In this document: positions 21,526 through 58,883 of the stretch, piece after piece
Position numbering within the stretch: the first letter of the stretch is position 1
Layout: every line of letters starts with the position of its first letter
DNA from: Halichondria panicea
Lineage: Eukaryota; Porifera; Demospongiae; Suberitida; Halichondriidae
DNA: 64,000 nucleotides
Direction: 5' to 3'
Assembly (NCBI RefSeq): GCF_963675165.1
Contig: NC_087379.1
Location: 6,179,839-6,243,838, forward strand
The notes under the pieces: model-generated
The model's input: only the letters and a program-made list of their open reading frames with translations
Database searches by the model: none
Told to the model about the DNA's origin: nothing
Translations under genes and position numbers: made by a program

Positions 21526-23751
21526 ATGGCCGAGAGAGTGACTACGAAAGAAGCTCTCAAGAAACTCGATGCTCAACTCGAATGCTCCATTTGTCTCGAC
21601 AATTTCAAGCAGCCGAAACTCTTGCCTTGTTTTCACGTATTTTGCAAGTCCCCGTGTCTGGAGAAACTAGTGACCAAGGATGGACGCTCCCTCACTTGTC
21701 CCACCTGTCGACACATTGTCCCACTGTCAGAGAGGGGAGTGGCTGGACTGCAATCAGACTTCCACATCGACCACTTGTTTGAGATACAAGACGCTTTCAA
21801 CAAGGTCGAAGACGACAATGATACGAACTGTGGCTGTGAGGATGGCAAAGCCACTGGGTACTGTAACGACTGTGGGGACTTTTTATGTGACGAATGTCAA
21901 GCTGCTCACAAAAGAGTTAAATACACACGTGATCATAGACTAAATTCGCTCGATGAACTCAAAGCTCAAGTGACTAGCCTGATTCCCCCCAAGAAGGCTG
22001 TCCCCCGTTGCCCCAAACACTCGGAGAATTCTCTCAAGATATACTGTGATACTTGCTCCACTCTCATTTGCACGGACTGCACTATTCGTCTCCACAAAGA
22101 CCACAACTACGACCTGGTGCCTGATGTGCTGACCAAGCACAAAGAAGAACTTGTCTCCAGTCTCAAACCAGTCAAAGAGAAGCTGGACAGTGTACAACGA
22201 GCTCTGAAGGACTTTGACACAAGAGCCAAGGCAATCCACAATCAGAGGGCCGCGATTGAAGCCAACATCCACAAGGAGATTGACGAACAACATCGACTGT
22301 TGGACCAACGAAGGGCAGAGCTTGTAGGAGAGCTAGAGATGCTGACTCAGCAGAAGCTGAAGGATCTGGCGGCACAGAAGGACCAAGTGGAGATTACTCA
22401 GGTGAAACTGACTAGCTGTCTGGAGTACGCTGAAGTGGGTCTCAAAACAGGCACAGACGGTGAAGTACTCGAAATGAAATCTTCCATTGTTAAGAGAGTT
22501 AAACAAATCACTGCAGAATTCGAATCAAATGCTATTCAGCCAGAGACAAAGGCTGACATGGAACTGATCACTGAAGGAAAAGAACCTCTCCAACAAGCTT
22601 ACCAAGATTTCCTAGAAATTGATCACAATCGATCATTCAGCTTAGAGAACAGCCACATGACAGGAGATTGTCTGAAAGATGCTACCTCTGAAGAAACCAA
22701 AACTTTATCCTATCAAGGAATGACCAAAAATAACAAGAAATTCAAAGACAAACTTAACATCAAAGCTGAACTTGTGCATATCGAAAGCGAAGGCATATTG
22801 AAATGTGAAGCGATCGAGGAACCACATGGCCAACACAAGATCAACTATCGTCCTGTGAAACGAGGAAAGCATGAACTACACATCACTGTCAATGGGGACC
22901 CAGTACGAGGCAGTCCATTCCCAATAGCTGTAGTCTCATCACCACAGAGTTTCGTCAAGCCTTCCCGAGTTGTACGAGGTGTGAACAAACCACGAGGCAC
23001 TGTCTTCAACAGTAAGGGGCAGCTGGTTGTTGTTGAAGGTGAAGGAACTACTGTCTCTGTATTGACACCAGAGGGTGAGAAGATACGAACGTTTGGAAAG
23101 CTGAAAAATGCATTTGGAGTGACTGTCGACAAAGACGACAACATCTATGTTGTGGAGAATGGCAATCATCGTTTGAATAAGTTCTCATCCGCCGGAAAGT
23201 TTGTGGCGGTTGTTGGTAGTCAAGGCAGTGGTAACCTTCAGTTTCTGCACCCTGCTGGTATCTGTTATAACAGAAGAGACAATAACCTGTATGTGACTGA
23301 TAATTGTAACCACAGAATACAAGTGCTTACCACTGATCTGAAGTTTGTACGGTGTTTCGGTACACCTGGCAATGGGAATGGACAATTACAAAACCCATTT
23401 TATGCAACATTTGATAGTGCCAACAACCTCTATGTGACTGAACACACTAACCATCGAGTACAAGTCTTCACTGCTGAAGGTCATTTCCTGAGAACCTTCT
23501 CACAAAAAGCCGACGGTCAGAAGCTGAGTTATCCCTGGGCCATAGCCATCGATAGCAATGACACAGTGTACGTCAGTGAGAATGGACCGCATCATGTGAG
23601 TGTGTTCACATCTCAGGGAGCCTACATCACCACGTTTGGTGGGCAAGGAACGAAAGAGGGACAGTTTAATATCATTTATGGACTCTCTATTGATTGCAAT
23701 GATTCTGTTGTTGTATCCGATCAAGGCAACGGGCTACTGCAGATATTCTAA
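21526..23751 (+). CDS. TRIM-NHL protein, array copy 1 (741 aa)
   Basis: Single uninterrupted frame. The RING has Cys20, Cys23, Cys35, His37, Cys40, Cys44, Cys58 and Cys61; the spacing between Cys40 and Cys44 is one residue longer than the usual C-x2-C. B-box 1 is at about 102-140 (CGCEDGK, one residue shorter than in most copies) and B-box 2 at about 162-196 (CPKH, CDTCSTLICTDC, HKDHNY). A coiled coil at about 200-310 and a filamin-type Ig domain at about 396-470 (YRPVKRGKHELHITV, GSPFPIAV) follow. NHL repeats run from about 480 to the end. This is the TRIM2/TRIM3/TRIM71 architecture: a RING ubiquitin ligase whose NHL beta-propeller binds RNA or protein. Loops in the NHL part differ sharply from the sister genes (574-577 LHPA, 592-596 DNCNH, 639-643 EHTNH). 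Substrate unknown. Confidence 0.93.
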   Translation: MAERVTTKEALKKLDAQLECSICLDNFKQPKLLPCFHVFCKSPCLEKLVTKDGRSLTCPTCRHIVPLSERGVAGLQSDFHIDHLFEIQDAFNKVEDDNDTNCGCEDGKATGYCNDCGDFLCDECQAAHKRVKYTRDHRLNSLDELKAQVTSLIPPKKAVPRCPKHSENSLKIYCDTCSTLICTDCTIRLHKDHNYDLVPDVLTKHKEELVSSLKPVKEKLDSVQRALKDFDTRAKAIHNQRAAIEANIHKEIDEQHRLLDQRRAELVGELEMLTQQKLKDLAAQKDQVEITQVKLTSCLEYAEVGLKTGTDGEVLEMKSSIVKRVKQITAEFESNAIQPETKADMELITEGKEPLQQAYQDFLEIDHNRSFSLENSHMTGDCLKDATSEETKTLSYQGMTKNNKKFKDKLNIKAELVHIESEGILKCEAIEEPHGQHKINYRPVKRGKHELHITVNGDPVRGSPFPIAVVSSPQSFVKPSRVVRGVNKPRGTVFNSKGQLVVVEGEGTTVSVLTPEGEKIRTFGKLKNAFGVTVDKDDNIYVVENGNHRLNKFSSAGKFVAVVGSQGSGNLQFLHPAGICYNRRDNNLYVTDNCNHRIQVLTTDLKFVRCFGTPGNGNGQLQNPFYATFDSANNLYVTEHTNHRVQVFTAEGHFLRTFSQKADGQKLSYPWAIAIDSNDTVYVSENGPHHVSVFTSQGAYITTFGGQGTKEGQFNIIYGLSIDCNDSVVVSDQGNGLLQIF

Positions 23752-23998
23752 GGAGATATATACATGTAGTACAGTCAAGCCAAGAACTTGTGTTTGTTGC
23801 TTATAGTTAGACTAGTGTAGAATGTGTTGGTATATAATTACATGTAGCGTTTTATAATGGCATTGTGAAATCAACCTTGAACTTGTGTGAATCTGTAATT
23901 ATGACATGAATTCAAACTCTGACCTTCCATGCAGTCAATGCATGCATATTAATTTTTGATTCTTTTAAACTGAACTAGCTTCTAGCCTCATGCATACT

Positions 23999-25101
23999 GA
24001 TGGTTCAGTGGATGCTAAGAAGAGCACAGTTATAGTCAAATAGATGGACAGAAGGTTCCTTCCGATCTATGTGTTTGTGTGACAGTGTGCCCTCCATACG
24101 TACCAATACAATAGTAAGGGAGGAACCTTAAAACTTTTGTCATTGTTTCTAGAACTATTATTGATTATTGATTGTTTCCAGGCTCTTACGATATTTGTGC
24201 TTGCCAAAGTTGACCTGGCGGAGAAGGGTGGAGTCAAACAAGACAGGTGAGTGTGTGTGACCAATCAGATTGATGCTATATAGTTTGACCCTGCAGATGC
24301 TCTCAATTCTGAATCAATGGTCAGTTGTTCCCGATAATTAAAGGCCCTTGGATACTATGCCCTGGTTACCGGGAGAGGTATCATATCTTTCCCTGCATTG
24401 TACACATGCATGTGAGGTAGGCAGCTAGATAGCTGTAGGGGGGGGGGGGGGGGGGGGGGAGGAGGGGACTCACTGGAATAGTTTGGACAAAGTAGTCTCT
24501 CTCGTACCAGAACATGTATATGTGTTCTGCCTACTCTACATGGTGTATACTGTAAATATAATGCAGGAATGGTATGCTGAGAGAGTCCCAGCTGTCCACA
24601 CGTAACATGGTGACGGCTTTGATGGAGGAGTTTTGGAAGATGGTCCGGGGGTCCATCAACGATCAGGCACTGCACTTCAAGAGTGAAAGTTGTAGCTAGT
24701 AAATGATTGCAGAGTGGTACTGCAGACACATGCATGCAGGTAGTGTATGTTATGAAGTGATGTGAAAAGAGTTGCGTAGTCATACAAGTACTATTTGTGT
24801 GGGTGTGTCTGAGGTGTGGGTGTGTATATATACCTGATGCACAAACTTGTGCTGGTCCCAGGTCTGTACCGTAGATTATTGGTCAATATTCACTGAATTT
24901 TTCTAGTGTACATACTTTATTTTTCCGGAGGATCGAGGTTCTTTGTATAACATATGCTCTTTACTCGAATACAGCTCGGCGGTACAACCTAGAGGCTGAG
25001 TGGCGTAATAGCATTAGGTACCCTGTGGGGAGAACACTGGACAGAGACGACCTCTTTGAGTTGGGTAAGGCGGACATCTTGACCAAGGTCGCCAGTTTGC
25101 A
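23999..25101 (+). pseudogene. OPA1 exon relics 9, 10, 11, 13 and 14 in original order
   Basis: Recognisable exons: 9 at about 24000-24060, 10 at 24180-24247, 11 at 24297-24377, 13 at 24566-24682, 14 at 24974-25101. Exon 12 is missing, exons 9-11 carry small deletions, and exon 14 has an extra insertion before TACCCTG. Exons 13 and 14 keep good splice signals, but exons 1-8 are not joined upstream, so no OPA1 protein can be made. A G-run at about 24438-24460 lies in the exon 11-13 gap. The segment shows that TRIM copy 1 sits where OPA1 intron 8 would be. Confidence 0.8.
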
Positions 25102-25299
25102 GGTGAGGGGATACTGTGTAGTTCAGTTTTTAGTAATGTGGATAATAATGACTCACGGCAATAACACTTTGCACAACGGACACACACACACACATACATT
25201 CAATATAATATCATATAATTATATGACTCAGCTTCTTATACTATCATGGTACAGTACATTGCACATGGGGGGGGGGGGGGGTGGTAAAAAGGTAAAAAG

Positions 25300-25525
25300 G
25301 TAAAAAGCTAAACTCACCCTGGGCCATAGCCATCGATAGCAATGACACAGTGATAATGGACCGCATCATGTGAGTGTGTTCACATCCCAGGGAGCCTACA
25401 TTACCACGTTTGGTGGGCAAGGAACGAAAGAGGGACAGTTTAATATCATTTATGGACTCTCTATTGATCGCAATGACTCTGTTGTTGTATCCGATCAAGA
25501 CAACGGGCGACTGCAGATATTCTAA
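25300..25525 (+). pseudogene. Detached NHL cassette (last two blades of a TRIM-NHL gene)
   Basis: The cassette matches the last 75 or so codons of the TRIM-NHL genes, from CTGGGCCATAGCCATCGATA to the stop codon. A small deletion near 25350 breaks the frame, and there is no start, RING or promoter. It ends DQDNGRLQIF, like copy 6 and unlike the adjacent copy 1 (DQGNGLLQIF). A twin lies at 52464-52689. Confidence 0.8.
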
Positions 25526-25600
25526 CGAGATAAGTAGTTAAACCATTATAGTTAGACTAACTGTATATAGTTAGTCCATATATTTCACGATATGACAGTA

Positions 25601-25675
25601 GCATTTTTGGACTCTCTATTGATTGCAATGATTCTGTTGTTGTGTCCGATCAACAGGCGACTGCAGATATTTTAT
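25601..25675 (+). pseudogene. Second, shorter NHL 3'-end fragment
   Basis: About 75 bp matching the final blade (GGACTCTCTATTGATTGCAA through CTGCAGATATTTTA), with an internal deletion, 75 bp downstream of the longer cassette. Its twin is 52764-52838. Not coding. Confidence 0.7.
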
Positions 25676-26171
25676 TATGTGGTTACGTCAAATCATTAAC
25701 TTTATTGGTTAATGTAGAAATTGTTGTTATTATTTGTGTATGCATTCTGTATAGTTTGATTTAACTGCGTTCAAACTCTGACGTACATATAGAACTAGCT
25801 TCCAGCCTGCATGTTTTTATCCTACAGATACAGCCATGCATAGATTGTCTGTACTAGCTGTTTGTTTGTGTGGACCTTCAAGATTTACACAGCCTCCCCC
25901 TCATGTGACAATACCTCTCTCGAATACATGTAGTCTGTTTTTTTTTACTACCGTAATTTGATGAATGAGGCAATTGAATTACGATCATGTTGCTGGCATT
26001 ATAGATCTCATGCAATATACAGAGACTCTGTACTAAGCTAAAACATTGGCATCCCTCACCCCTTTGACTCGCCAAATCGGCTATAAATTCAGCACCAAAT
26101 TTTACCTGCTATACGGCATTGTTGAAGGAATTAAAACTATTGTCTTGATTTCTAGTCTGTCTTTCTTTTTC

Positions 26172-26776: not shown

Positions 26777-26807
26777 AAGAACAACTGTACATGTAGGATT
26801 GCTAACC

Positions 26808-28155: not shown

Positions 28156-30381
28156 ATGGCTGAGAGAGTGACTACGAAAGAAGCTCTCAAGAAACTCGAT
28201 GCTCAACTCGAATGCTCCCTTTGTCTTGACACTTTCAAGCAACCGAAACTCTTGCCTTGTTTTCACGTATTTTGCAAGTCCCCGTGTCTGGAGAAACTAG
28301 TGACCAAGGATGGACGCTCCCTCACTTGTCCCACCTGTCGACACATTGTCCCACTATCAGAGAGGGGAGTGACTGGACTGCAATCAGACTTCCACATTGA
28401 CCACTTGTTTGAGATACAAGATGCTTTCAACAAGGCCGAAGACGAAAATGATACAAACTGTGGCAACTGTGAGAATGGCAAAGCCACTGGATATTGTAAC
28501 GACTGTGGAGACTTTTTGTGTGATGAATGTCAAGCTGCTCATAAGAAAATGAAGTATCTACATAGTCATAAACTAATTTCGCTGGATGAACTCAAAGCTC
28601 AAGTGACTAGCCTGATTCCCCCTAAGAAAGCCGTCCCCCATTGCCACAAACACTCGGGGAATAACCTCAAGATATACTGCGATACCTGCTCCACTCTCAT
28701 TTGCACGGACTGCACCATTCGACTCCACAAAGACCACAACTACGACCTGGTGGCTGATGTGCTGACCAAGCACAAGGAAGAACTTGTCTCCAGTCTCAAA
28801 CCAGTCAAAGAGAAGCTGGACATCGTGCAACAAGCTCTGAAGGACTTTGACACAAGAGCCAAGGCAATCCACGATCAGAGGGCCACGATTGAAGCCAACA
28901 TCCACAAGGAGATTGACGAACAACATCGATTGTTAGACCAACGAAGGGCAGAACTTGTAGGAGAGCTAGAGATGCTGACTCAACAGAAGCTGAAGGATCT
29001 GGCAGCACAGAAGGACCAAGTGGAGATCACTCAAGTGAAACTGACCAGCTGTCTGGAGTACGCTGAGGGTGGTCTCAAAACAGGCACAGATGGTGAAGTA
29101 CTAGAAATGAAATCTTCCGTTCTCAAGAGAGTTAAACAGATCACTGCGGAATTCGAATCAAATGCTATTCAGCCAGAGACAAAGGCTAACGTGGAACTAA
29201 TCACTAAAGGAAAAGAACCTCTCCAAAAAGCTTGTCGAAATTTCCTAGAGGTTGATCACAGTGGATCATTCAGCTTAGAGAACAGCCACATGACAGGAGA
29301 TTGTCTGAAAAATGCTACCTCTGAAGAAACAAAAACTTTATCCTATCAAGGAATGACCAAAAATAACAAGAAATTCAAAGACAAACTTAACCTCAAAGCT
29401 GAACTTGTGCATATCGAGAGCAAAGACAAATTGAAATGTGAAGTGATCAAGCAACAACATGGCCAACACAAGGTCAACTATCGCCCTGTGAAACGAGGAA
29501 AGCATGAACTACACATCACTGTCAATGGGGACGCAGTACGAGGCAGTCCATTCCCAATAGCTGTAGCCCCATCACCACAGAGCTTCCTCAAGCCTTCCCA
29601 AGTTGTACGAGGTTTGAACAAGCCACGAGGCACTGTCTTCAACAGTAAGGGACAGTTGGTTGTTGTTGTTGAAGGAGCTACTGTCTCTGTATTGACACCA
29701 AAGGGTGAGAAGATACGATCGTTTAGACAGCTGAATGATGCGCATGGAGTAACTGTGGACAAAGACGACAACATCTATGTAGTGGAGCCTGACAATCATT
29801 GTGTGAATAAGTTTTCGTCTGACGGAGAGTTTGTGGCAGCTGTTGGTAGTCAAGGCAGTGGTAACCTTCAGTTTCTTTACCCAATTGGTATCTGTTATAA
29901 CAGAAGAGACAACAACCTGTATGTGCCTGATAACGGAAACAACAGAATACAAGTGCTCTCTACTGATCTGAAATTTGTACGATGTTTCGATACACTTGGC
30001 AATGGGAACGGACAATTACAAAACCCACTGTATGCAACATTTGATAGTTCCAACAACCTCTATGTGACTGATTACGTTAACGATCGAGTACAAGTCTTCA
30101 CTGCTGAAGGTAAATTCCTGAGAGCCTTCTCACAAAAAGCCAACGGTCAGAAGTTAAGTAATCCTCGAGCCATAGCCATCGACAGCAGTAATACAGTGTA
30201 CGTCAGTGAGAATGGACCGCATTATGTGAGTGTGTTCACGTCTCAGGGAGCCTACATCACCACATTTGGTGGACTAGGATCAAAAGAGGGGCAATTTAAT
30301 CAAATTTCCGGACTCTCTGTTGATCGCAATGACTCTGTTGTTGTGTCCGATCAAGTCAACGGGCGACTGCAGATATTCTAA
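28156..30381 (+). CDS. TRIM-NHL protein, array copy 2 (741 aa)
   Basis: Single-exon gene with RING, two B-boxes, coiled coil, filamin-type Ig and NHL repeats. B-box 1 here is CGNCENGKATGYC with both spaced Cys present, and AHKKMKYLHSH follows. The NHL loops are the most distinctive in the array: VEPDNHCVNKF, LYPIGICYN, DNGNNRIQV, DYVNDRVQVF, SNPRAIAID, NQISGLSVD. A conserved His is replaced by Asn or Asp in two blades and Arg by Cys in a third. All framework residues remain, so it looks functional with a changed binding face. It probably acts as a cytoplasmic E3 ligase, as other TRIM-NHL proteins do; the ligand is unknown. Confidence 0.93.
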   Translation: MAERVTTKEALKKLDAQLECSLCLDTFKQPKLLPCFHVFCKSPCLEKLVTKDGRSLTCPTCRHIVPLSERGVTGLQSDFHIDHLFEIQDAFNKAEDENDTNCGNCENGKATGYCNDCGDFLCDECQAAHKKMKYLHSHKLISLDELKAQVTSLIPPKKAVPHCHKHSGNNLKIYCDTCSTLICTDCTIRLHKDHNYDLVADVLTKHKEELVSSLKPVKEKLDIVQQALKDFDTRAKAIHDQRATIEANIHKEIDEQHRLLDQRRAELVGELEMLTQQKLKDLAAQKDQVEITQVKLTSCLEYAEGGLKTGTDGEVLEMKSSVLKRVKQITAEFESNAIQPETKANVELITKGKEPLQKACRNFLEVDHSGSFSLENSHMTGDCLKNATSEETKTLSYQGMTKNNKKFKDKLNLKAELVHIESKDKLKCEVIKQQHGQHKVNYRPVKRGKHELHITVNGDAVRGSPFPIAVAPSPQSFLKPSQVVRGLNKPRGTVFNSKGQLVVVVEGATVSVLTPKGEKIRSFRQLNDAHGVTVDKDDNIYVVEPDNHCVNKFSSDGEFVAAVGSQGSGNLQFLYPIGICYNRRDNNLYVPDNGNNRIQVLSTDLKFVRCFDTLGNGNGQLQNPLYATFDSSNNLYVTDYVNDRVQVFTAEGKFLRAFSQKANGQKLSNPRAIAIDSSNTVYVSENGPHYVSVFTSQGAYITTFGGLGSKEGQFNQISGLSVDRNDSVVVSDQVNGRLQIF

Positions 30382-38935: not shown

Positions 38936-41161
38936 ATGGCCGAGAGAGTGACAACAAAAGAAGCTCTCAAGAAACTCGATGCTCAACTCGAATGCTCCCT
39001 TTGTCTCGACACTTTCAAGCAACCGAAACTCTTGCCTTGTTTTCACGTATTTTGCAAGTCCCCGTGTCTGGAGAAACTAGTGACCAAGGATGGACGCTCC
39101 CTCACTTGTCCCACCTGTCGACACATTGTCCCACTATCGGAGAGGGGAGTGGCTGGACTGCAATCAGACTTCCACATCGACCACTTGTTTGAGATACAAG
39201 ATGCTTTCAACAAGGCCGAAGATGACAATGATACAAATTGTGGTAACTGTGAGAATGGCAAAGCCACGGGATACTGTAACGACTGTGGAGACTTTTTGTG
39301 TGATGAATGTCAAGCTGCTCATAAGAAAATGAAGTATCTACAGAGTCATAAACTAGTTTCGCTGGATGAACTCAGAGCTCAAGTGACTAGCCTGGTTCCC
39401 CTCAAGAAGGCCGTCCCCCATTGCCCCAAACACTCGGAGAATGCCCTCAAGATATACTGCGATACCTGCTCCACTCTCATTTGCACGGACTGCACCATTC
39501 GTCTCCACAAAGACCATAACTACGACCTGGTGGCTGATGTACTGACTAAGCACAAAGAAGAACTTGTTTCCAGCCTCAAACCAGTCAAAGAGAAGCTGGA
39601 CATCGTGCAACAAGGTCTGAAGGACTTTGACACAAGAGCCAAAGCAATCCACAATCAAAAGGCCACGATTGAAGCCAACATTCACAAAGAGATTGACGAA
39701 CAACATCGACTGTTGGACCAACGAAGGGCAGAGCTTGTAGGAGAGCTAGAGATGCTGACTCAGCAGAAGCTGAAGGATCTGGCGGCACAGAGGGACCAAG
39801 TGGAGATCACTCAGGTGAAACTGGCCAGCTGTCTGGAATACGCTGAGGGGGGTCTTAAAACAGGCACAGATGGTGAAGTACTCGAAATGAAATCTTCTGT
39901 TCTCAAGAGAGTCCAACAAATTTCTACTGAATTCGATCGAAACACGATTAAGCCAGAAACAAAGGCTGACATGGAACTGATCACTAAAGGAAAAGAACCT
40001 CTCCAACATACTTGCCAAGATTTCCTAGAGGTTGATCACAGTGGATCATTCAGCTTAGAGAACAGCCACACGACAGGAGATGGTCTGAAAGGTGCTACAA
40101 ATGGAGAAACAAAAAGTGTATCCTTTCAAGCAGTGACCAAGAAAAATAAGAAATTCAATGTCAAACTCGACCTCAAAGCTGAACTCGTGCGTTTAGAGAG
40201 CAAAGACAGATTGAAATGTGAAGTGATCAAGCAACAACATGGCCAACACAAGATCAACTATCAGCCTATGAAACGAGGAAAGCATGAACTACACATCACT
40301 GTCAATGGGGACGCAGTACGAGCAAGTCCATTCCCAATAGCTGTAGCCCCATCACCACAGAGCTTCGTCAAGCCTTCCCGAGTTGTACGAGGTGTGAACA
40401 GCCCACGAGGTACTGTCTTCAACAGTAAGGGACAGTTGGTTGTTGTTGAAGGAGCTACTGTCTCTGTATTGACACCAGAGGGTGAGAAGATACGAACGTT
40501 CGGAAAGCTGAATAATGCGTATGGAGTGACTGTGGACAAAGACGACAACATCTATGTAATGGAGTGTAGCAGCAATCATCGTGTGAATAAATTCTCATCC
40601 GACGGAGAGTTTGTGGCAGCTGTTGGCAGTAAAGGCAGTAGTAACCTTCAGTTTAATAGCCCATTTGGTATTTGTTATAACAGAAAAGACAACAACCTGT
40701 ATGTGCCTGATCAGGGTAACCACAGAATACAAGTGCTCTCTACTGAACTGAAGTTTGTACGATGTTTCGGTACCATAGGCAATGGAAACGGACAATTACA
40801 AAACCCATTTGATGTAACATTTGATAGTGCCAACAACCTCTATGTGACTGATCATGGTAACCATCGAGTACAAGTCTTCACTGCTGAAGGTCAATTCCTG
40901 AGAACCTTTTCACAAAAAGCCAACGGTCAGAAGCTGAGCTCACCCTATGCCATAGCCATCGACAGCAGTGACACAGTCTACGTCAATGAGAATGGACTGG
41001 ATCATGTGAGTGTGTTCACATCTCAGGGAGCCTACATCACCACGTTTGATGGGTCAGGAACGAAAGAGGGACAGTTTAATAGCATTTATGGACTCTCTAT
41101 TGATCGCAATGACTCTATTGCTGTATCTGATCTGAACAACGGGCGACTGCAGATATTTTAG
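38936..41161 (+). CDS. TRIM-NHL protein, array copy 4 (741 aa)
   Basis: Complete single-exon TRIM-NHL gene. The N-terminal region resembles copy 2 (AHKKMKYLQSHKL), while the filamin part and NHL framework are closer to copy 3 (QISTEFDRNTI, DQGNHRIQV, SDLNNGRLQIF), so it looks like a mosaic. One NHL loop has an extra residue (MECSSNHRVNKF), and others read NSPFGICYN, NPFDVTFD, DHGNHRVQVF and ENGLDHVSVF. All RING and B-box metal ligands are present. Expected to be a cytoplasmic RING-type ubiquitin ligase; substrate unknown. Confidence 0.93.
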   Translation: MAERVTTKEALKKLDAQLECSLCLDTFKQPKLLPCFHVFCKSPCLEKLVTKDGRSLTCPTCRHIVPLSERGVAGLQSDFHIDHLFEIQDAFNKAEDDNDTNCGNCENGKATGYCNDCGDFLCDECQAAHKKMKYLQSHKLVSLDELRAQVTSLVPLKKAVPHCPKHSENALKIYCDTCSTLICTDCTIRLHKDHNYDLVADVLTKHKEELVSSLKPVKEKLDIVQQGLKDFDTRAKAIHNQKATIEANIHKEIDEQHRLLDQRRAELVGELEMLTQQKLKDLAAQRDQVEITQVKLASCLEYAEGGLKTGTDGEVLEMKSSVLKRVQQISTEFDRNTIKPETKADMELITKGKEPLQHTCQDFLEVDHSGSFSLENSHTTGDGLKGATNGETKSVSFQAVTKKNKKFNVKLDLKAELVRLESKDRLKCEVIKQQHGQHKINYQPMKRGKHELHITVNGDAVRASPFPIAVAPSPQSFVKPSRVVRGVNSPRGTVFNSKGQLVVVEGATVSVLTPEGEKIRTFGKLNNAYGVTVDKDDNIYVMECSSNHRVNKFSSDGEFVAAVGSKGSSNLQFNSPFGICYNRKDNNLYVPDQGNHRIQVLSTELKFVRCFGTIGNGNGQLQNPFDVTFDSANNLYVTDHGNHRVQVFTAEGQFLRTFSQKANGQKLSSPYAIAIDSSDTVYVNENGLDHVSVFTSQGAYITTFDGSGTKEGQFNSIYGLSIDRNDSIAVSDLNNGRLQIF

Positions 41162-42995: not shown

Positions 42996-45612
42996 TAAGT
43001 GCTGTAATTGAAGCAAATACGATAATCTCATCACTATTATGATTATAAGCCTTACATGTGTATGTACTTTGTACTGTGTTCTTAGGAATGGGTAGTAGAT
43101 TGAAGTCCAAATTGTGGTTGTCACTGCTACCATTCAATAGAGATTAGCATATTGCAACAGTATATTAGTGGCAGATCTCCTGGTATTAATCTCATTTATC
43201 AGTGCTCTTGAGACATGAACTTCTATTCACTGGCCAGATTCCTTTGCATTAGTACGATTGTTGTGACTTTGGCAGGGCAGGTGATATTGAAAAGCACATT
43301 GGCATATCTGTACACTTACTCAGTCCCATTGTACATCGACTATTAGAGCTTGTGTGCAATTACAAGTACACAAGTACGAGAGAGACTACTTTGCTCGTTC
43401 CAAACTATTCCAGTGAGTTCTCGCCCTAGCTACCTAGCTGCCAACCTCACATGCATGGTGTACTGTAAATATAATGCAGGAATGGTATGCTGAGAGAATC
43501 CCAGCTGTCCACACGTAACATGGTGACAGCTGTGACGGAGGAGTTCTGGAAGATGGTCCGGGGGTCCATCAACGATCAGGCACTCCACTTCAAGAGTGAG
43601 AGTTGTAGCTAGTGAATGATTGCAGAGTAGTACTGTACAAGTACATGTACATGCAGGGTGACTAGGTTATTTAATGTGTTGTTTATTTAGTTTCTCAACC
43701 CAAATGCAGCTCTGCGGTACAACCTAGAGGCTGAGTGGCGTAATAGGTACCCTGGGGGAAGGACACTGGACAGAGACGACCTTTTTGAGCTGGGAAAAGC
43801 GGACATCTTGACCGAGGTCGCCAGTCTGCAGGTGAGGGGATACTGTACACATACGGAGGTATGAACAATTACAAAATCTGTAGTTTAGTTTTTAGAAATA
43901 AGAATGTGCATTCTATTTGACAGTTGAGTTTTATTATAATGACCTTCACCAAATTTGAAAAGGAACATTTTTTTCATTAGAGGAGTTCTACATGGCATGT
44001 TCAAAACTCCCCTCCATGTATTATATCTGCTGTAGGTCCTCCCACCCAACAAGTGGGAGATGATTCTGAGCGAGGGACTCTGGGACAGAATGGCCCCCAA
44101 AGTGTTGGACATCTTTATGGCAGCTGCTCAAGGACGTTCGCCAGGGTGAGGGGTGATATAGTGTCATTGTGTGGATTCCATGTAATGGATGCCATGGTTG
44201 TATAGTGTATATCATACCAATAGTGTACCTAGCACTAAAACATTATTTCATGATTCCTTCAGAGAATTCAACACATCAGCTGATATCCAACTGCACAAGT
44301 GGGCTGACAGCCAAGAGCTGGCGAAGCTGTGCACTGAGGTATGTACCTGTGTTACATGAGCTCACACTGAGCACCTTTGACTGCATGGGCATGCATTTTT
44401 GTCAGTGGCTTTAAACATTAATGATAATTATGGTTTGTGGTTATTGTTTAGAGACATACATCACGCGTGTGCACGCAGTGACACACATACACACTGTTCT
44501 CAGGTTGGTCTGGAGACAATGTTTGAGCAGCTACACACCAAACTGGAGGATGGGGGAGAGGGTGGGGCCAATCGGTTCCACTCCCTGAGTCAGGGCCTTC
44601 GTGAGGAGATAGAGAGACTGGGCAGAACACAACACCAGTGGGAGGGGTACAATGTTGATCAACTGGTACGTCTGTGGAAAGGAGTAACAGTTTTTTTAGA
44701 GATAATAATTATCATTGACAAACTAACTTCACCCTCTCTCCCCCCACAGAAATACGTTCAGATGTCAGCTCTGGATGACAAGGACGTCCAGACAGCGGAA
44801 CAGTGGGAAGCAGCCGTCCAGTTCATGAGCTCCTCTCTTAAGAAGCAGATACGAGTGGCGGAGGAGGAGATGCAGAGGATGGAGGGACCCACGTCTTATT
44901 ACGACCGCTGGATCAGGTGGAAGGGGCAGAATGAGTTGGAGATCAAGAGGCAAGCCGTCGCTAATGAACTCAATAACTTCCTACGAGCAGAACCGGTGAG
45001 GGTATGTGTGTTTGCGGAGGATTTCATTCAGTTATCACACTCAACATTGTCTGACTATTCACACGATTACACTATCTCTTAATGCTCCTCACACAGTCCC
45101 ACCCGAACAAGCTCTACGCTGATGAAGTGATGACAGTGCAGAGAGTGCTCAAGACCAACGGATATTCTGTCTCTGAAGAGGATGTCAGTCAATTTAATCT
45201 ATGCATTGCATGCTCATAATTATTTGCCCTCTGTGTGCATGTAACTTTGTATGACATGAAATGTGTTGGCATTGACCTTTTTAAGTATAACTTTTCTTGT
45301 GTTATCCTATGCTCTCTGCATGCCAGTAAACGCTATATTGTGATTCTCTTGACAGGTACAGTACGTGTGGGAGCGTGTGTACGACCTCCACTTTCTACGA
45401 GAAGCTGAGGAAGTGGCCAACAAGTGTCAGTGGGGGTTCAACCTACGCCACCACAGCACTGAGGTACATTTGTCCCTTTGATGTGGCTTTGTCTATATCA
45501 CTATGCCTATAATTATACTAACAGATGTAGTAGTGAAAGTGCCTCGATGGTGTTTTGCACATCGTTTGTGCATGTAGGATGTGAACTTCTATAGTGTGAT
45601 TAGCTGTGCTTT

Positions 45613-48241: not shown

Positions 48242-48289
48242 TGGGGTAATAACGATTACATCATCGTAAATACGCCTGGATGACCACAC

Positions 48290-48522: not shown

Positions 48523-50748
48523 ATGGCCGAGAGAGTGACTACGAAAGAAGCTCTCAAGAAACTCGATGCTCAACTCGAATGCTCCATTTGTCTCGACAAT
48601 TTCAAGCAGCCGAAACTCTTGCCTTGTTTTCACGTATTTTGCAAGTCCCCGTGTCTGGATAAACTAGTGACCAAGGATGGACGCTCCCTCACTTGTCCCA
48701 CCTGTCGACACATTGTCCCACTGTCAGAGAGGGGAGTGGCTGGACTGCAATCAGACTTCCACATCGACCACTTGTTTGAGATACAAGATGCTTTCAACAA
48801 GGCTGAAGACGACAATGATACGAACTGTGGCTGTGAGGATGGCAAAGCCACTGGATACTGTAACGACTGTGGGGACTTTTTATGTGACGAATGTCAAGCT
48901 GCTCACAAAAGAGTTAAATATACACGTGATCATAGACTAAATTCGCTCGATGAACTCAAAGCTCAAGTGACTAGCCTGGTTCCCCCCAAGAAGGCTGTCC
49001 CCCATTGCCCCAAACACTCGGAGAATTCTCTCAAGATATACTGTGATACTTGCTCCACTCTCATTTGCACGGACTGCACTATTCGTCTCCACAAAGACCA
49101 TAACTACGACCTGGTGCCTGATGTGCTGACCAAGCACAAGGAAGAACTTGTCTCCAGTCTCAAACCAGTCAAAGAGAAGCTGGACAGTGTACAACGAGCT
49201 CTGAAGGACTTTGACACAAGAGCCAAGGCAATCCACGAACAGAGGGCCGCGATTGAAGCCAACATCCACAAGGAGATTGACGAACAACATCGACTGTTGG
49301 ATCAACGAAGGGCAGAGCTTGTGGGAGAGCTAGAGATACTGACTCAGCTGAAGCTGAAGGATCTGGCGGCACAGAGGGACCAAGTGGAGATCACTCAGGT
49401 GAAACTGACTAGCTGTCTGGAGTACGCTGAAGTGGGTCTCAAAACAGGCACAGACGGTGAAGTACTCGAAATGAAATCTTCCATTGTTAAGAGAGTTAAA
49501 CAAATCACTGCAGAATTCAAATCAAGTGCTATTCAGCCAGAGACAAAGGCTGACATGGAACTGATCACTGAAGGAAAAGAACCTCTCCAACAAGCTTACC
49601 AAGATTTCCTAGAAATTGATCACAATCGATCATTCAGCTTAGAGAACAGCCACATGACAAGAGATTGTCTGAAAGATGCTACCTCTGAAGAAACCAAAAC
49701 TTTATCCTATCAAGGAATGACCAAAAATAACAAGAAATTCAAAGATAAACTTAACATCAAAGCTGAACTTGTGCATATCGAAAGCGAAGGCATATTGAAA
49801 TGTGAAGTGATCGAGGAACCACATGGCCAACACAAGATCAACTATCGCCCTGTGAAACGAGGAAAGCATGAACTACACATCACTGTCAATGGGGACGCAG
49901 TACGAGGCAGTCCATTCCCAATAGCTGTAGTCTCATCACCACAGAGCTTCGTCAAGCCTTCCCGAGTTGTACGAGGTGTGAACAAACCACGAGGCACTGT
50001 CTTCAACAGTAAGGGGCAGTTGGTTGTTGTTGAAGGTGAAGGAACTACTGTCTCTGTATTTACACCAGAGGGTGAGAAGATACGAACGTTTGGAAAGCTG
50101 AAAAATGCATTTGGAGTGACTGTCGACAAAGACAACAACATCTATGTTGTGGAGAATGGCAATCATCGTTTGAATAAGTTCTCATCCGCCGGAAAGTTTG
50201 TAGCGGTTGTTGGTAGTCAAGGCAGTGGTAACCTTCAGTTTCTGCACCCTGCTGGTATCTGTTATAACAGAAGAGACAACAACCTGTATGTGACTGATAA
50301 TTGTAACCACAGAATACAAGTGCTTACCACTGATCTGAAGCTTGTGCGATGTTTCGGTACACCTGGCAATGGGAATGGACAATTACAAAACCCATTTTAT
50401 CCAACATTTGACAGTGCCAACAACCTCTATGTGACTGAGCACACTAACCATCGAGTACAAGTCTTCACTGCTGAAGGTCAATTCCTGAGAACCTTCTCAC
50501 AAAAAGCCAAAAGTAAAAAGCTGAACTCACCCTGGGCCATAGCCATCGATAGCAATGACACAGTGTACGTCAGTGAGAATGGACCGCATCATGTGAGTGT
50601 ATTCACATCCCAGGGAGCCTACATCACCACGTTTGGTGGGCAAGGAACGAAAGAGGGACAGTTTAATATCGTTTATGGACTCTCTATTGATCGCAATGAT
50701 TCTGTTGTTGTATCCGATGAAGGCAACGGGCTACTGCAGATATTCTAA
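48523..50748 (+). CDS. TRIM-NHL protein, array copy 5 (741 aa)
   Basis: Closest relative of copy 1, with which it was duplicated in the 10-kb block; it shares the shortened B-box 1 (CGCEDGK). All domains are complete. Differences from copy 1 include Pro for Ala in NPFYPTFD, and a run reading KAKSKKLNSPWAIAID where copy 1 has KADGQKLSYPWAIAID. That run is identical at DNA level to the silent cassette at 52464, suggesting a conversion tract. Terminal blade: SDEGNGLLQIF. Expected role as for the other TRIM-NHL ligases; ligand unknown. Confidence 0.93.
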   Translation: MAERVTTKEALKKLDAQLECSICLDNFKQPKLLPCFHVFCKSPCLDKLVTKDGRSLTCPTCRHIVPLSERGVAGLQSDFHIDHLFEIQDAFNKAEDDNDTNCGCEDGKATGYCNDCGDFLCDECQAAHKRVKYTRDHRLNSLDELKAQVTSLVPPKKAVPHCPKHSENSLKIYCDTCSTLICTDCTIRLHKDHNYDLVPDVLTKHKEELVSSLKPVKEKLDSVQRALKDFDTRAKAIHEQRAAIEANIHKEIDEQHRLLDQRRAELVGELEILTQLKLKDLAAQRDQVEITQVKLTSCLEYAEVGLKTGTDGEVLEMKSSIVKRVKQITAEFKSSAIQPETKADMELITEGKEPLQQAYQDFLEIDHNRSFSLENSHMTRDCLKDATSEETKTLSYQGMTKNNKKFKDKLNIKAELVHIESEGILKCEVIEEPHGQHKINYRPVKRGKHELHITVNGDAVRGSPFPIAVVSSPQSFVKPSRVVRGVNKPRGTVFNSKGQLVVVEGEGTTVSVFTPEGEKIRTFGKLKNAFGVTVDKDNNIYVVENGNHRLNKFSSAGKFVAVVGSQGSGNLQFLHPAGICYNRRDNNLYVTDNCNHRIQVLTTDLKLVRCFGTPGNGNGQLQNPFYPTFDSANNLYVTEHTNHRVQVFTAEGQFLRTFSQKAKSKKLNSPWAIAIDSNDTVYVSENGPHHVSVFTSQGAYITTFGGQGTKEGQFNIVYGLSIDRNDSVVVSDEGNGLLQIF

Positions 50749-53881: not shown

Positions 53882-53885
<4 letters not shown>

Positions 53886-53966
<81 letters not shown>
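53886..53966. repeat. (GT)n microsatellite
   Basis: About 80 bp of GT repeat with a few GC interruptions, preceded by three imperfect copies of a GTGGGTGTGTACATTA-type unit. It lies near the end of the 10-kb block. Confidence 0.9.
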
Positions 53967-53987
53967 ACCTGATGCATGAACTTGTAA

Positions 53988-54415
53988 CAACCTTTTTTTT
54001 CTTTTTTTCTTTATCAATGTTTGATGCAAAGGAAGCATACAGGATATGACAAGGTAGCTAAATAAGGCTAATAATGAAGTCAGTCCATGACCGAAAAGTA
54101 AAGGTTCAGGTGCAGGTGTACTTAAGTGAAAAAAATAAAAAAGAACTTAGTTTTGACAGGGATAGTTTGAAAGCAGATGGGCTAGGGCTACTGATAACAT
54201 TTAGGGGAAGGGAGTTCCATGCAAATAGGGATTATGCTTACAAAAAAGGAATGTCTATGCATGGGCTAGGGTTTTAACAAATGGTTTAAAAATAATTTGA
54301 TTATAAGGGTGACGGGGGGGAAGGGCGAGGATGGAGGGTGAAAACAATTATAGATAGATTATTAAAGCAGACTTTTAGTTTTTGGTTCTTCCTTCGAGAT
54401 GACCTAGGGTTATAA
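53988..54415 (-). mobile_element. Possible retroposed insertion with T-rich left end
   Basis: The block begins with a T-rich run after AACAACC and interrupts sequence otherwise like the relic intron before OPA1 exon 14. The orientation suggests a minus-strand retroposon with an A-rich tail. No clear target duplication or known coding domain was found, so this is tentative. Confidence 0.35.
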
Positions 54416-54511
54416 AAGTGGCGTAATAGGTACCCTGGGAGGACACTGGAGAGAGACGACCTCTTTGAACTGGGAAAGGCGGACATCTTGACCGAGGTCG
54501 CCAGTCTGCAG
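54416..54511 (+). pseudogene. OPA1 exon 14 relic (3' part)
   Basis: From AAGTGGCGTAATAGGTACCC to GTCTGCAG with a normal GTGAGG donor. The 5' third is replaced by the T-rich block. Confidence 0.75.
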
Positions 54512-54542
54512 GTGAGGGGATACTGTACATGCACATATGTAA

Positions 54543-54619
54543 CTAAAAACTGAACCCCACAGATTCGGTAAAATAATACCTAGTAGGTATTATACAGAGT
54601 CTGTGGGTTCAGTTTTTAG
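54543..54619. repeat. Imperfect 77-bp palindrome derived from OPA1 intron 14
   Basis: Arms CTAAAAACTGAACCCCACAGA and TCTGTGGGTTCAGTTTTTAG around a second smaller palindrome (AATACCTAGTAGGTATT). The right arm equals the start of OPA1 intron 14, so the left arm is an inverted local duplicate. Confidence 0.7.
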
Positions 54620-54833
54620 GAACAAGCCTTTAGAATATGAGAATAACAATGCCTTTTCTTTTCTTGTAATGCTAACTTTGAGTGCATGGGGGACTGTGTG
54701 AGTGGATAATTATAGCAATTAATTAACCGTTTAACGCGAAATTTAACGCCTTGTTCCTTACAGCTCAGATGCATGTTAGTGAAGTATTTACTAACAACGG
54801 ACCCCCCCCCCACACACACACACACACTTACAG

Positions 54834-55065
54834 GTGGTGGTGGTGGTTGGAGATCAGAGTGCTGGCAAGACGAGCGTCCTCGAGATGGTTGCTAATGCTC
54901 GTATATTCCCACGGGGAGGAGGGGAGATGATGACTCGTAGCCCCACCATGGTTACCCTTAGCAACAGACCAGAGTGTATTGCAATGGTCTCTCGAGGACA
55001 AGTTTGAACTACACACATTACATGCAGAACCAGAACACCATCATCATGTGGCTTGTGCATACATG
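54834..55065 (+). pseudogene. OPA1 exon relics 5 and 8
   Basis: Exon 5 (54834-54990) still encodes [20 protein letters not shown] and the MMTRSP switch with one extra GTG at the start. Exons 6 and 7 are gone, and a decayed exon 8 (about 55018-55065) follows directly. Confidence 0.75.
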
Positions 55066-55574
55066 TAAGTGCTGTAATTGAAGCTTTAACACTGAGTGCT
55101 AACATGGGCTAAGCTTACAGTTCGCTTCACCCTCAATAATTATAGACATAATTCTTCAAGGTTCAAAAGTGGTTTGAATTCTGCAACAGCTTCGAAATGC
55201 TAGGTACACTGTAGGCTAGCTAAGTCAACTGAACTCAGGGCCTTGTAAAATAAACAATCTGATTTCAATACGGGCCATTTAGTTCCATCGGGAGTTCATA
55301 AAGAGGAGTATCCAACTGTAGCCTGGTGGGTACCGTAGTTTTTCAATATGAACTCCTTGGTTCCACGTAAATATTCCCCGGCCTCTAGAATGTGCTTCCA
55401 CTCTGAAATCCCACTCTGGAATGCCACTTACATTCTACTAAACTTCCACTAAACTTCAATTCTAAACTTCTAAACATCCACTCTGAAATTCCATTGTGCG
55501 TATGTGGCATTGCACATGGGGGGAATGTGAATTTGTGGAAATTGTGAAATGAAATTGTGTACTGTGTTGGTTGT

Positions 55575-55622
55575 AGCCTCGATCTCAGGCCGCACTTCAT
55601 CTGGCCTGTGAAGGAGGCTAGG
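55575..55622. mobile_element. Small TAGCCTC/GAGGCTA element
   Basis: Ends TAGCCTCGATC and GAGGCTA in the style of 41671-41717, about 48 bp long. A clean target duplication was not seen. Confidence 0.45.
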
Positions 55623-55758
55623 TTGGTGGGTGACCATGCAACAGTGTGTGTGTTTGCTGATTATAGTGGATTGCAACAGTTTGTCCTTGCAAGGTCTTGA
55701 TAAACTGCCAGCTCAGCAAACGTCATCACAATGGAAACAGAGGGTCTGAGGGAAACAA

Positions 55759-55822
55759 TAGTTTCGCGGCCCAACTCCACAATCTGATACTACCAGATTG
55801 TGGAGTATGGCCCGCGAGACTA
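55759..55822. mobile_element. 64-bp palindromic element with 9-bp target duplication
   Basis: Ends TAGTTTCGCGG and CCGCGAGACTA, with a long inner hairpin (ACTCCACAATCTG paired with CAGATTGTGGAGT). Flanks GGGAAACAA and AGGAAACAA match at 8 of 9 positions. Same end type as the 66-bp elements. Confidence 0.75.
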
Positions 55823-55859
55823 AGGAAACAATTTAACACCTTATTTCTCTGTAGAATGA

Positions 55860-56654
55860 TTGCTATGAATATTGTTACCCATTATTGGTGAACCCCACCC
55901 CACATGACATCACCCTATTCTATGCTTCAAGCTAATGTCATCAACAAAGAATTGTGAGTTAATCCCTCAATGACTTGTGTTTGACTGTCTGTATGTACTA
56001 GGAATATACCGTACTTTTTCGAAATAAGGCACCCTTCCAATAATGCACCCCCTTGGAATTTGCTCATGAATCAGCCGCACTTGGAAAGTCCGTCTGAGCA
56101 CTTTAGTCATGACTTTTTTGGTCAGGTCGAAATTCCGACCTGACCAATCAGATCGAAGATTGACAAAATTAAAGGAAATAAAGAATGACAAGAAGCGTAT
56201 GCGTTCTATACAGTAGGACGCATTTATAGCTAGCCGCTAACAGCCTAACTGTGGCTACTGTTAGCCAGTCAAAGAGCTATAGTAAGTTGAGTTGACTGCA
56301 CAATAGTGCTGTGCAACCTTTTCTTGTTCTTTTAGCAACGTTATTGGAGCAAGCCAAACAAAAATTCATAGCTGCTAGTCAAGAATTCGCCGTTGACCTT
56401 TTGCATGCGTTAAATTCTTTTGGTTTTGACACTGACGTAATGACAATTAACATTCCATTGTGGAATGACCTCTATACTAAAGTGCTCAGACGTACTTTCC
56501 AAGTGCGGCTGATTAATGAGACTAATAGAACTGTATAAATTCACAGATCTATAATAGAAGAAATACAGTAAGTGCAGTTTGAAAAACTTTCAATGTTCCC
56601 TCACAGATATCACCCAGTAACAAACCTTACGGCACTCGATAAATTCCCAAAGCC
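55860..56654 (+). promoter_or_regulatory. Upstream region and 5' UTR of TRIM copy 6, with an inserted repeat
   Basis: The promoter-like block ends in ACAAAGAATT with a GTGAGT donor near 55951. The CCCTCACAG acceptor ends at 56606 and the ATG is at 56655. The putative 5' UTR intron is longer than in other copies because a repeat (56006-56525) has been inserted. Confidence 0.45.
56006..56525. mobile_element. Inverted-repeat element of the TACCGTACTT family
   Basis: It begins TACCGTACTTTTTCGAAATA followed by AAGGCACCC. AATCAGCCGCACTTGGAAAG near 56071 reappears inverted near 56495. Short open frames on both strands are products of this repeat. A related left end occurs near 62980, upstream of copy 7. 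Confidence 0.5.
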
Positions 56655-58883
56655 ATGGCCGAGAGAGTGACTACAAAAGAAGCTCTCAAGAAACTCGATG
56701 CTCAACTCGAATGCTCCCTTTGTCTCGACACTTTCAAGCAGCCGAAACTCTTGCCTTGTTTTCACGTGTTTTGCAAGTCCCCGTGTCTGGAGAAACTAAT
56801 GACCAAGGATGGACGCTCCCTCACTTGTCCCACCTGTCGACACATTGTGCCACTGTCAGAGAGGGGAGTGGCTGGACTGCAATCAGACTTCCACATTGAC
56901 CACTTGTTTGAGATACAAGATGCTTTCAACAAGGCTGATGACGACAATGATACGAACTGTGGCAACTGTGAGGATGGCAAAGCCACTGGGTACTGTAACG
57001 ACTGTGGGGACTTTTTGTGTGACAAGTGTCAAGCTGCTCATAAGATAGTTAAGCTGTCAAGGAATCATAAACTAATTTCGCTGGATGAACTCAAAGCTCA
57101 AGTGACTAGCCTCGTTCCTCCCAAAAAGGCCATCCCTCATTGCCCCAAACACTCGGAGAATGCCCTTAAGATATACTGTGATACTTGCTCCACTCTCATT
57201 TGCATGGACTGCACCATTCGTCTCCACAAAGACCACAACTACGACCTGGTGGCTGATGTGCTGACCGAGCACAAAGAAAAACTTGTCTCCAGTCTCAAAC
57301 CAGTCAAAGAGAAGCTGGACAGTGTAAAACGAGCTCTGAAGGATTTTGACACAAGAGCCAAGGCAATCCATGATCAGAGGGCCATGATTGAAGCCAACAT
57401 CCACAAGGAGATTGACAAACAACATCGACTGTTGGACCAACGAAGGGCAGAGCTTGTGGGAGAGCTAGAGATGCTGACTCAGCAAAAGCTAAAGGATCTG
57501 ACGGCACAGAGGGACCAAGTGGAGATCACTCAGGTGAAATTGACCAGCTGTCTGGAGTACGCTGAAGGGGGGCTCAAAACAGGCACAGACGGTGAAATAC
57601 TCAAAATGAAATTTTCTGTTGTTAAGAGAGTCGAACAGATCACTACCGAATTCAAATCAAAAACTATTCAGCCAGAGACAAAGGCTGACATGGAACTGAC
57701 CACAAAAGGAAAAGAACCTCTCCAACAAGCTTGTCAAAATTTCCTAGAGGTTGATGACAGTGGATCATTCAACTTAGAGAACAGCCACACGACAGGAGAA
57801 GGTCTGAAAGTTGCTACAATTAGAGAAATAAAAACTATGTCCTTTCAAGTAATGACCAAGAAAAACAAGAAATTCAACGGCAAACTCGACCTCAAAGCTG
57901 AACTTGTGCATATCGTGGGCAAAGACAGATTGAAATGTGAAGTGATCGAGCAACAACATGGCCAACACAAGATCAACTATCGCCCTATGAAACGAGGAAA
58001 GCATGAACTACACATCACTGTCAATGGGGACGCAGTACGAGGCAGTCCATTCCCAATAGCTGTAGCCCCATCACCACAGAGCTTCCTCAAGCCTTCCCAA
58101 GTTGTACGAGGTTTAAACAAGCCACGAGGCACAGTCTTCAACAGTAAGGGACAGTTGGTTGTTGTTGAAGGTGAAGGAGCTACTGTCTCTGTGTTGACAC
58201 CAGAGGGTGAGAAGATACGAACGTTTGGACATCTAAATGACGCGTATGGAGTGACTGTGGACAAAGATGACAACATCTATGTAGTAGAGCGTAGCAATTA
58301 TCGTGTGAATAAGTTCTCATCCGACGGAGAGTTTGTGGCGGTTGTTGGTAGTCAAGGCAACGGTAACCTTCAGTTTTCTAACCCACATGGTATCTGTTAT
58401 AACAGAAGAGACAACAACCTGTATGTGCCTGATAACATGAATCACAGAATACAAGTGCTCTCTACTGAACTAAAGTTCGTACGATGTTTCGGTACACCTG
58501 GCAATGGGAACGGACAATTACAAAACCCAGTGTATGCATCATTTGATAATGCCAACAACTTCTATGTGACTGACTACTGTAACCATCGAGTACAAGTCTT
58601 CACTGCTGAAGGTCAATTCCTGAGAACCTTCTCACAAAAAGCCAACGGTCAGAAGTTGAGCTCACCCTATGCCATAGCCATCGAAAGCAGTGACACAGTG
58701 CACGTCAGTGAGAATGGATCGCATTATGTGAGTGTGTTCACATCTCAGGGAGCCTATATCACTGCGTTTGGTGGACCAGGAACGAAAGAGGGACAGTTTA
58801 ATGGCATTTACGGACTCTCTATTGATCGCAATGACTCTGTTGTTGTGTCCGATCAAGACAACGGGCGACTGCAGATATTCTAA
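56655..58883 (+). CDS. TRIM-NHL protein, array copy 6 (742 aa)
   Basis: Complete single-exon gene. B-box 1 contains DKCQAAHKIVKLSRNHKL, unlike any sister. The filamin part (MTKKNKKFNGKLDLKAELV) is followed by NHL repeats with private loops: VERSNYRVNKF, SNPHGICYN, DNMNHRIQV, NPVYASFDN, DYCNHRVQVF, ENGSHYVSVF, terminal DQDNGRLQIF. One framework Asp is Glu (AIAIESSDTVHV). All metal ligands of RING and B-boxes remain. It shares the extra Glu-Gly pair (VEGEGATVSV) with copies 1 and 5, although the rest is closer to copies 3 and 4, another sign of exchange between copies. Confidence 0.93.
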   Translation: MAERVTTKEALKKLDAQLECSLCLDTFKQPKLLPCFHVFCKSPCLEKLMTKDGRSLTCPTCRHIVPLSERGVAGLQSDFHIDHLFEIQDAFNKADDDNDTNCGNCEDGKATGYCNDCGDFLCDKCQAAHKIVKLSRNHKLISLDELKAQVTSLVPPKKAIPHCPKHSENALKIYCDTCSTLICMDCTIRLHKDHNYDLVADVLTEHKEKLVSSLKPVKEKLDSVKRALKDFDTRAKAIHDQRAMIEANIHKEIDKQHRLLDQRRAELVGELEMLTQQKLKDLTAQRDQVEITQVKLTSCLEYAEGGLKTGTDGEILKMKFSVVKRVEQITTEFKSKTIQPETKADMELTTKGKEPLQQACQNFLEVDDSGSFNLENSHTTGEGLKVATIREIKTMSFQVMTKKNKKFNGKLDLKAELVHIVGKDRLKCEVIEQQHGQHKINYRPMKRGKHELHITVNGDAVRGSPFPIAVAPSPQSFLKPSQVVRGLNKPRGTVFNSKGQLVVVEGEGATVSVLTPEGEKIRTFGHLNDAYGVTVDKDDNIYVVERSNYRVNKFSSDGEFVAVVGSQGNGNLQFSNPHGICYNRRDNNLYVPDNMNHRIQVLSTELKFVRCFGTPGNGNGQLQNPVYASFDNANNFYVTDYCNHRVQVFTAEGQFLRTFSQKANGQKLSSPYAIAIESSDTVHVSENGSHYVSVFTSQGAYITAFGGPGTKEGQFNGIYGLSIDRNDSVVVSDQDNGRLQIF

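What the first reader, a model, noticed from the sequence alone, without database searches (positions are those of the whole stretch)
21526..58883. TRIM-NHL array whose variation is concentrated on one face of the beta-propeller
Seen: in the six copies that reach the NHL part, replacements cluster in two short stretches per blade. Copy 1 numbering: 526-530, 544-550, 574-577, 592-596, 624-628, 639-643, 668-671, 687-690, 715-718, 733-737. Examples before GICYN: LHPA, LYPI, SSPF, NSPF, SNPH. Examples before NHRVQVF-type strands: EHT, DYV, EYT, DHG, DYC. Strand residues between them hardly change. Known: in NHL propellers (Brat, LIN-41, TRIM71) the loops before the first strand and between the second and third strand of each blade form the top, ligand-binding face. 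Inference: the array encodes RING ligases sharing one effector end with diversified recognition faces, as expected of an innate recognition or antiviral repertoire. I know of no described system of this kind in sponges.
Basis: partly seen in the sequence, partly recalled or inferred. Interest (0 to 1): 0.85.

Follow-up and report, generated by a model that had tools for sequence, protein, structure and literature searches.

The report
Animal gene repertoire with hypervariable recognition faces
Dozens of near-identical ubiquitin-ligase genes in an animal genome differ mainly at one ring of residues on the binding face of their propeller domain, where selection favours change, so they look like a built-in repertoire of recognition molecules, probably against microbes or viruses.

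Summary
The window holds seven copies of a single-exon RING / two B-box / filamin / six-bladed NHL gene: five intact, one frame-broken, one with an internal deletion. They belong to a family (A) of at least 30 near-full-length members. Two sister families, 37% (B) and 31% (C) identical to A, have at least 23 and 51. In all three, replacements concentrate on the top face of the propeller. Site-wise likelihood tests find positive selection at 13 of 87 top, 0 of 50 bottom and 2 of 129 strand sites in A, and 10 of 85, 0 of 44 and 2 of 131 in C. Hits centre on the 30 blade positions equivalent to those that touch RNA in LIN41 (joint omega about 5 in C, 2 in A). Those positions differ in 55-62% of comparisons, other NHL positions in 9-13%. 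RING and B-boxes are constrained. An AlphaFold model supports the topology. Face residues are rarely basic, which argues against LIN41-like RNA binding. Best reading: a germline repertoire of cytosolic E3 ligases with diversified recognition faces, most likely innate defence. Ligand, immune role and species remain unproven.

The parts
21526..23751 (+). copy c1 (=L031), intact 741-aa RING-Bbox-Bbox-filamin-NHL gene
28156..30381 (+). copy c2 (=L020), intact, 741 aa
33672..35884 (+). copy c3: ORF to 35624 then frame break inside the NHL domain; homology runs on to ~35884
38936..41161 (+). copy c4 (=L009), intact, 741 aa; reference numbering and AlphaFold model (residues 359-741)
40346..41158 (+). 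NHL six-bladed propeller of c4 (residues 471-741), the diversified recognition domain
48523..50748 (+). copy c5 (=L034), intact, 741 aa, recent duplicate of c1 (dS 0.03-0.07)
56655..58883 (+). copy c6 (=L018), intact, 742 aa
63168..64000 (+). copy c7: RING and B-boxes present, 353-nt deletion in the region between B-boxes and filamin, frame broken; continues past the window end

Best explanation
A multigene repertoire of cytosolic TRIM-NHL (class VII type: RING, two B-boxes, filamin, NHL) E3 ubiquitin ligases. SHOWN by sequence: at least 104 near-full-length members in three families (seven with an internal stop); conserved RING; exchange between copies; positive selection concentrated on a ring of about five residues per blade, three around the d-a loop proline and two in the b-c turn, on the top face of the six-bladed propeller. 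INFERRED: each gene's face binds a different or fast-changing intracellular protein (or other non-nucleic) ligand; the long region after the B-boxes makes a coiled-coil dimer as in other TRIMs, the filamin-NHL end captures the ligand, and the RING ubiquitinates it or signals. New faces arise by duplication, point replacement under selection and blade-scale gene conversion. Most likely role: innate recognition of viral or microbial molecules.
Against: No expression, binding or infection data. In A the average over all top sites is omega 1.0 with one tree (1.28 with blade trees), face pN/pS is only 1.32 over all pairs and 1.11 over disjoint nearest pairs, and the synonymous rate at A face codons is raised (mean 2.9), so A is weaker than B and C. 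With structure-derived classes A has 0/51 bottom hits but 4/117 strand hits against 11/91 top (top vs bottom p=0.008); three of the four strand hits lie near the top ends of strands. After FDR (q<0.1) only 9 sites remain in A and 2 in C. In B the NHL remainder outside face and bottom is also above 1 (1.23) and rests on six sequences. The less strict empirical-Bayes scan also marks 6 of 205 RING/B-box and 8 of 160 coiled-coil-region sites in A. Gene conversion complicates tree-based tests. The face-position set was drawn from LIN41 after the A and C scans had been seen.
Confidence: 0.7

Rival explanations
1. RNA-binding regulators: as in LIN41 and Brat the top face binds RNA, and the copies diversify in mRNA or viral-RNA specificity.
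For: The selected blade positions are those that contact RNA in LIN41, and the nearest solved folds include LIN41-RNA and Brat-RNA complexes.
Against: Lys+Arg make up 8% (A) and 11% (C) of face residues against 8 of the 14 contacts named for LIN41. N, Q, S and T are the largest group (44% and 34%).
Confidence: 0.12
2. Allorecognition or self/non-self recognition between conspecifics, like fungal HNWD genes, rather than defence against microbes.
For: HNWD WD40 propellers show the same geometry of selected sites (PMC1805685 passages).
Against: Pfam scans show no membrane or secreted domain (no transmembrane or signal-peptide predictor was run), so an intracellular partner is expected. Polymorphism was not tested.
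Confidence: 0.12
3. Conflict with the host's own transposons or endogenous viruses: the ligases recognise changing capsid-like proteins, a genome-defence role.
For: Arrays, turnover and positive selection fit an arms race equally well.
Against: No direct evidence either way.
Confidence: 0.15
4. Relaxed constraint: the top face is simply the least constrained surface of drifting duplicates.
For: Top loops are exposed; some copies are broken. In A the average over all top sites is omega 1.0.
Against: Face omega well above 1 in C (2dlnL 52.3) and face pN/pS 2.3 in B; bottom loops stay at about 0.2-0.5 in A and C and 0.77 in B. Of 104 near-full-length members 7 carry an internal stop.
Confidence: 0.03
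5. Targeted hypermutation of face codons (a diversity-generating mechanism), suggested by codons such as A575 in which positions 1-2 are highly mixed and position 3 is C in 31 of 31.
For: Hypervariable codons have base entropy 1.14, 1.24 and 0.70 bits at positions 1, 2 and 3 in A. Total third-position difference is also raised there (A 0.283 against 0.116; C 0.339 against 0.065), mostly by transversions.
Against: Third-position transitions, the mostly silent class, are close to background in A (0.090 against 0.077) and less than doubled in C (0.079 against 0.045), while positions 1-2 rise about seven- to thirteen-fold. By eye no single base is favoured as the target. Selection suffices.
Confidence: 0.02

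Closest known systems
HNWD (HET-D/HET-E) NLR family of Podospora anserina, WD40 propeller
   Same: Multigene recognition family; four positively selected codons per repeat, one pair in the d-a loop and one pair in the b-c turn, each flanking a constrained residue, on the top face; exchange between members (PMC1805685, abstract and passages).
   Different: WD40 not NHL; NACHT/HET effector not RING ligase; repeats within a gene are homogenised there, whereas here the six blades of a gene differ and exchange is between genes; a fungus.
finTRIM family of teleost fish
   Same: TRIM ligases, near-identical RING/B-box, 84 zebrafish genes in clusters, positive selection in the C-terminal recognition domain (PMC2657112, abstract and outline).
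   Different: Recognition domain is B30.2, no NHL.
LIN41/TRIM71, Brat, TRIM2/3, Thin (TRIM-NHL)
   Same: Same NHL fold, nearest solved structures; LIN41 binds RNA through the same blade positions (PMC5908797, passages and part 3 of section 3).
   Different: The majority of LIN41 RNA contacts are identical across species; here the equivalent positions are among the most variable. Those genes are few per genome (recalled; human and fly lists in PMC3503706 passages).
Sponge and other invertebrate NLR/SRCR expansions
   Same: Lineage-specific innate-receptor expansions; this genome also has at least 102 NACHT matches.
   Different: Unrelated protein families.

Membership tests
TRIM class VII (TRIM-NHL) | RING, B-box 1, B-box 2 in order | tested here: met
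   Pfam RING and B-box stretches; RING zinc ligands conserved
TRIM class VII (TRIM-NHL) | Coiled coil after the B-boxes | not tested
   No coiled-coil predictor was run; a region of about 160 residues lies there
TRIM class VII (TRIM-NHL) | Filamin and NHL propeller at the C-terminus | tested here: met
TRIM class VII (TRIM-NHL) | E3 ubiquitin ligase activity | not testable with these tools
   needs an in-vitro assay
LIN41-type RNA-binding NHL | Basic top-face cavity with conserved Arg/Lys contacts | tested here: not met
   K+R 8-11% at the equivalent positions, and these positions hypervariable; LIN41 contacts. Judged from sequence; no electrostatics computed
Diversified innate recognition repertoire | Many copies, conserved effector, positive selection concentrated on the ligand-binding surface | tested here: met
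   strongest in C, weaker in A
Diversified innate recognition repertoire | Binds non-self or responds to infection | not testable with these tools
   no expression or binding data

The most novel reading that the evidence does not exclude
An animal lineage has evolved, independently of fungal HNWD WD40s and fish B30.2 finTRIMs, a germline repertoire of about 100 cytosolic ubiquitin ligases in which the NHL propeller face works as a variable-region-like combining site: about 30 residues on a constant six-bladed scaffold, nearly every gene with its own face, faces reshuffled blade by blade by gene conversion, all coupled to a shared RING effector for destroying intracellular invaders.
Probability: 0.5. 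Interest if true: 0.9.

Novelty: new variant of a known kind. Interest (0 to 1): 0.8.

Why it matters
NHL-type TRIMs are known mainly as regulators of development and RNA (recalled). Evidence that NHL faces can become a diversified recognition repertoire would add a recognition fold to animal innate immunity, show convergence on the same propeller face as fungal allorecognition genes, and make TRIM-NHL E3s a testable candidate for cytosolic defence in an invertebrate. The faces are compact and predictable, so ligand discovery is practical.

Tried and rejected
Tried: the empirical-Bayes (FUBAR-type) scan on C of 261 NHL sites, including singletons. I judged it over-confident and rely on FEL and class tests instead. 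Hypermutation idea: the third-position control gives little support. Filamin as a second recognition module: dN/dS about 0.5-0.65 over all A, B and C pairs, few significant sites in A and none in C; not pursued. Naming the species: no named eukaryote collection is held. Not done: polymorphism, expression, a standard PAML/HyPhy run (own MG94 code used), coiled-coil, membrane or signal-peptide prediction, structure of the full-length protein. Papers seen: PMC5908797 passages and part 3 of section 3; PMC1805685, PMC11229196, PMC8242945, PMC6208332, PMC5094078, PMC3503706, PMC3137616, PMC3386278, PMC11639872 passages only; PMC2657112 abstract and outline; others listing only. Claims of absence rest on paper searches of an open-licence library without preprints.

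Full report
WHAT IS THERE. The window is bases 6179839-6243838 of contig C3 of a 131.5-Mb, 39-contig genome. It carries seven tandem copies of one gene on the + strand. Pfam finds a RING, two B-box stretches, a filamin domain and NHL repeats. Five copies are intact (741-742 aa, one open frame), copy 3 is frame-broken in the NHL domain, and copy 7 has lost 353 nt between B-boxes and filamin. Genome search with copy c4 gives 30 near-full-length relatives at 82-100% identity, itself included (two with an internal stop, one lacking the first 20 residues), and five broken ones, mostly at C3:5.88-6.31 Mb. Two sister families lie at C3:0.07-1.92 Mb (B, 23 near-full-length, one with a stop, plus a 75% relative on C8) and on C11 (C, 51 near-full-length, four with a TAG). 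One member of each compared: A-B 37%, A-C 31%, B-C 30% identity. Counts are lower bounds, as the tool says.

CHECKING THE OBSERVATION. In the six window copies the 30 face codons give pN/pS 1.18, other top loops 0.39, bottom loops 0.29, strands 0.31.

SELECTION IN FAMILY A (31 sequences). With an MG94-type codon model of my own, site-wise LRTs give positive selection at 15 of 271 NHL sites (p<0.05): 13 of 87 top (d-a and b-c loops), 0 of 50 bottom (a-b and c-d loops), 2 of 129 strand. Nine pass q<0.1, eight of them top. Separate trees for each blade, to allow for recombination, give 12, 0 and 2. Simulated neutral data on the same tree give 2.6% false positives, purifying data 0.4%. Mean dN/dS is 0.22 for RING/B-box, 0.35 for the next region, 0.61 for filamin, 0.61 for NHL. 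Averaged over every top residue A is at omega 1.0 (one tree) or 1.28 (blade trees). Pair counts that use no tree give face pN/pS 1.32 (all pairs) and 1.11 (disjoint nearest pairs), bottom 0.29 and 0.24. So in A the excess is at particular sites, not the whole face.

FAMILY C (17 sequences). FEL: 10 of 85 top, 0 of 44 bottom, 2 of 131 strand (two pass q<0.1); whole top class omega 2.94, 2dlnL 54.7 against neutral. Tree-free face pN/pS 2.22 and 2.32, other top loops 1.34 and 1.93, bottom 0.31 and 0.23. FAMILY B (6 sequences): face pN/pS 2.30, bottom 0.77, rest of NHL 1.23.

WHICH RESIDUES. In the zebrafish LIN41-RNA structure the paper names 14 contact residues (PMC5908797). Counting along the TRIM71 sequences aligned, all 14 fall at five blade positions: two before, one before and one after the d-a loop proline, and the two residues after the b-c aspartate. 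This mapping was made by hand, after the A and C scans had been seen. The 30 equivalents hold 9 of 15 FEL sites in A and 8 of 12 in C, with joint alpha,beta of 2,4 and 1.3,7. Sliding the mask by one residue drops the amino-acid difference from 0.55 to 0.26-0.32 (A) and from 0.62 to 0.29-0.33 (C). Pairs of genes differ at 55% (A), 62% (C) and 61% (B) of face positions against 13%, 9% and 11% of other NHL positions; 30 of 31 A faces (L023 and L025 share one; c3 is partial) and 17 of 17 C faces are distinct. The most variable columns coincide between the three families, 15, 14 and 10 of the top 25 against 2.5 expected.

HOW VARIATION ARISES. Four-gamete incompatibility rises with distance (p=0.002 in A and in C), and C genes share single blade faces while the rest differs, for example L052/L053 share blade 3 with the rest of the face 20% identical. 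So copies appear to exchange blade-sized pieces. Third-position transitions within hypervariable codons are close to background in A (0.090 against 0.077) and less than doubled in C (0.079 against 0.045), though third-position transversions are raised; local hypermutation is not needed but not excluded.

FUNCTION. The RING is conserved and the Pfam scans show no membrane domain, so a cytosolic ligase is expected (inference). Few face residues are basic (8-11%), unlike LIN41. A passage in PMC11229196 reports a LIN41-annotated ubiquitin ligase among genes with lower expression in the sponge Aplysina aerophoba given symbionts; a hint only. Innate recognition is the most likely role; genome defence and allorecognition remain open.

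KNOWN AND NEW. The geometry of selected sites matches fungal HNWD WD40 propellers (PMC1805685), and the arrangement of constant RING/B-box with a selected C-terminal domain matches finTRIMs (PMC2657112). Multi-copy NHL/B-box proteins have been glimpsed, apparently in Amphimedon (nine-protein cluster in a table of PMC3386278), and NHL and B-box orthogroups expanded in merulinid corals (PMC11639872). I found no report of an NHL-face repertoire in searches. I file it as a new variant of a known kind.

Noticed in passing
window 13-591 and 3906-5191: TRAF-like pieces upstream of the TRIM array: a MATH domain at 13-591, and a RING ORF followed by an overlapping TRAF zinc-finger/MATH ORF at 3906-5191, probably exons or frame-broken copies.
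   Followed up: partly
window 44399-45082: OPA1 C-terminal (dynamin-like GTPase) fragment between copies c4 and c5.
   Followed up: no
G000:C11:945229, 1034592, 1102294, 1193187, 1240596: Five 99-100% identical C-family copies, four of them with a TAG-interrupted copy about 4 kb away: recent segmental duplications or an assembly effect.
   Followed up: no
family C filamin domain, L039-L060: Two divergent filamin types (9 and 8 of 17 sequences; codon difference 0.43 between, 0.22 within) that do not follow the RING or NHL grouping; mean dS 0.34 against 0.10 for NHL, dS correlation 0.08: filamin and NHL modules appear to be reassorted.
   Followed up: partly
whole genome G000: At least 102 NACHT-domain matches, with clusters on C7, C13 and C14: a large NLR-like expansion in the same genome.
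   Followed up: no
c4 residue 575 and family members: Codon with 11 different residues in 31 copies but third base C in all 31.
   Followed up: partly
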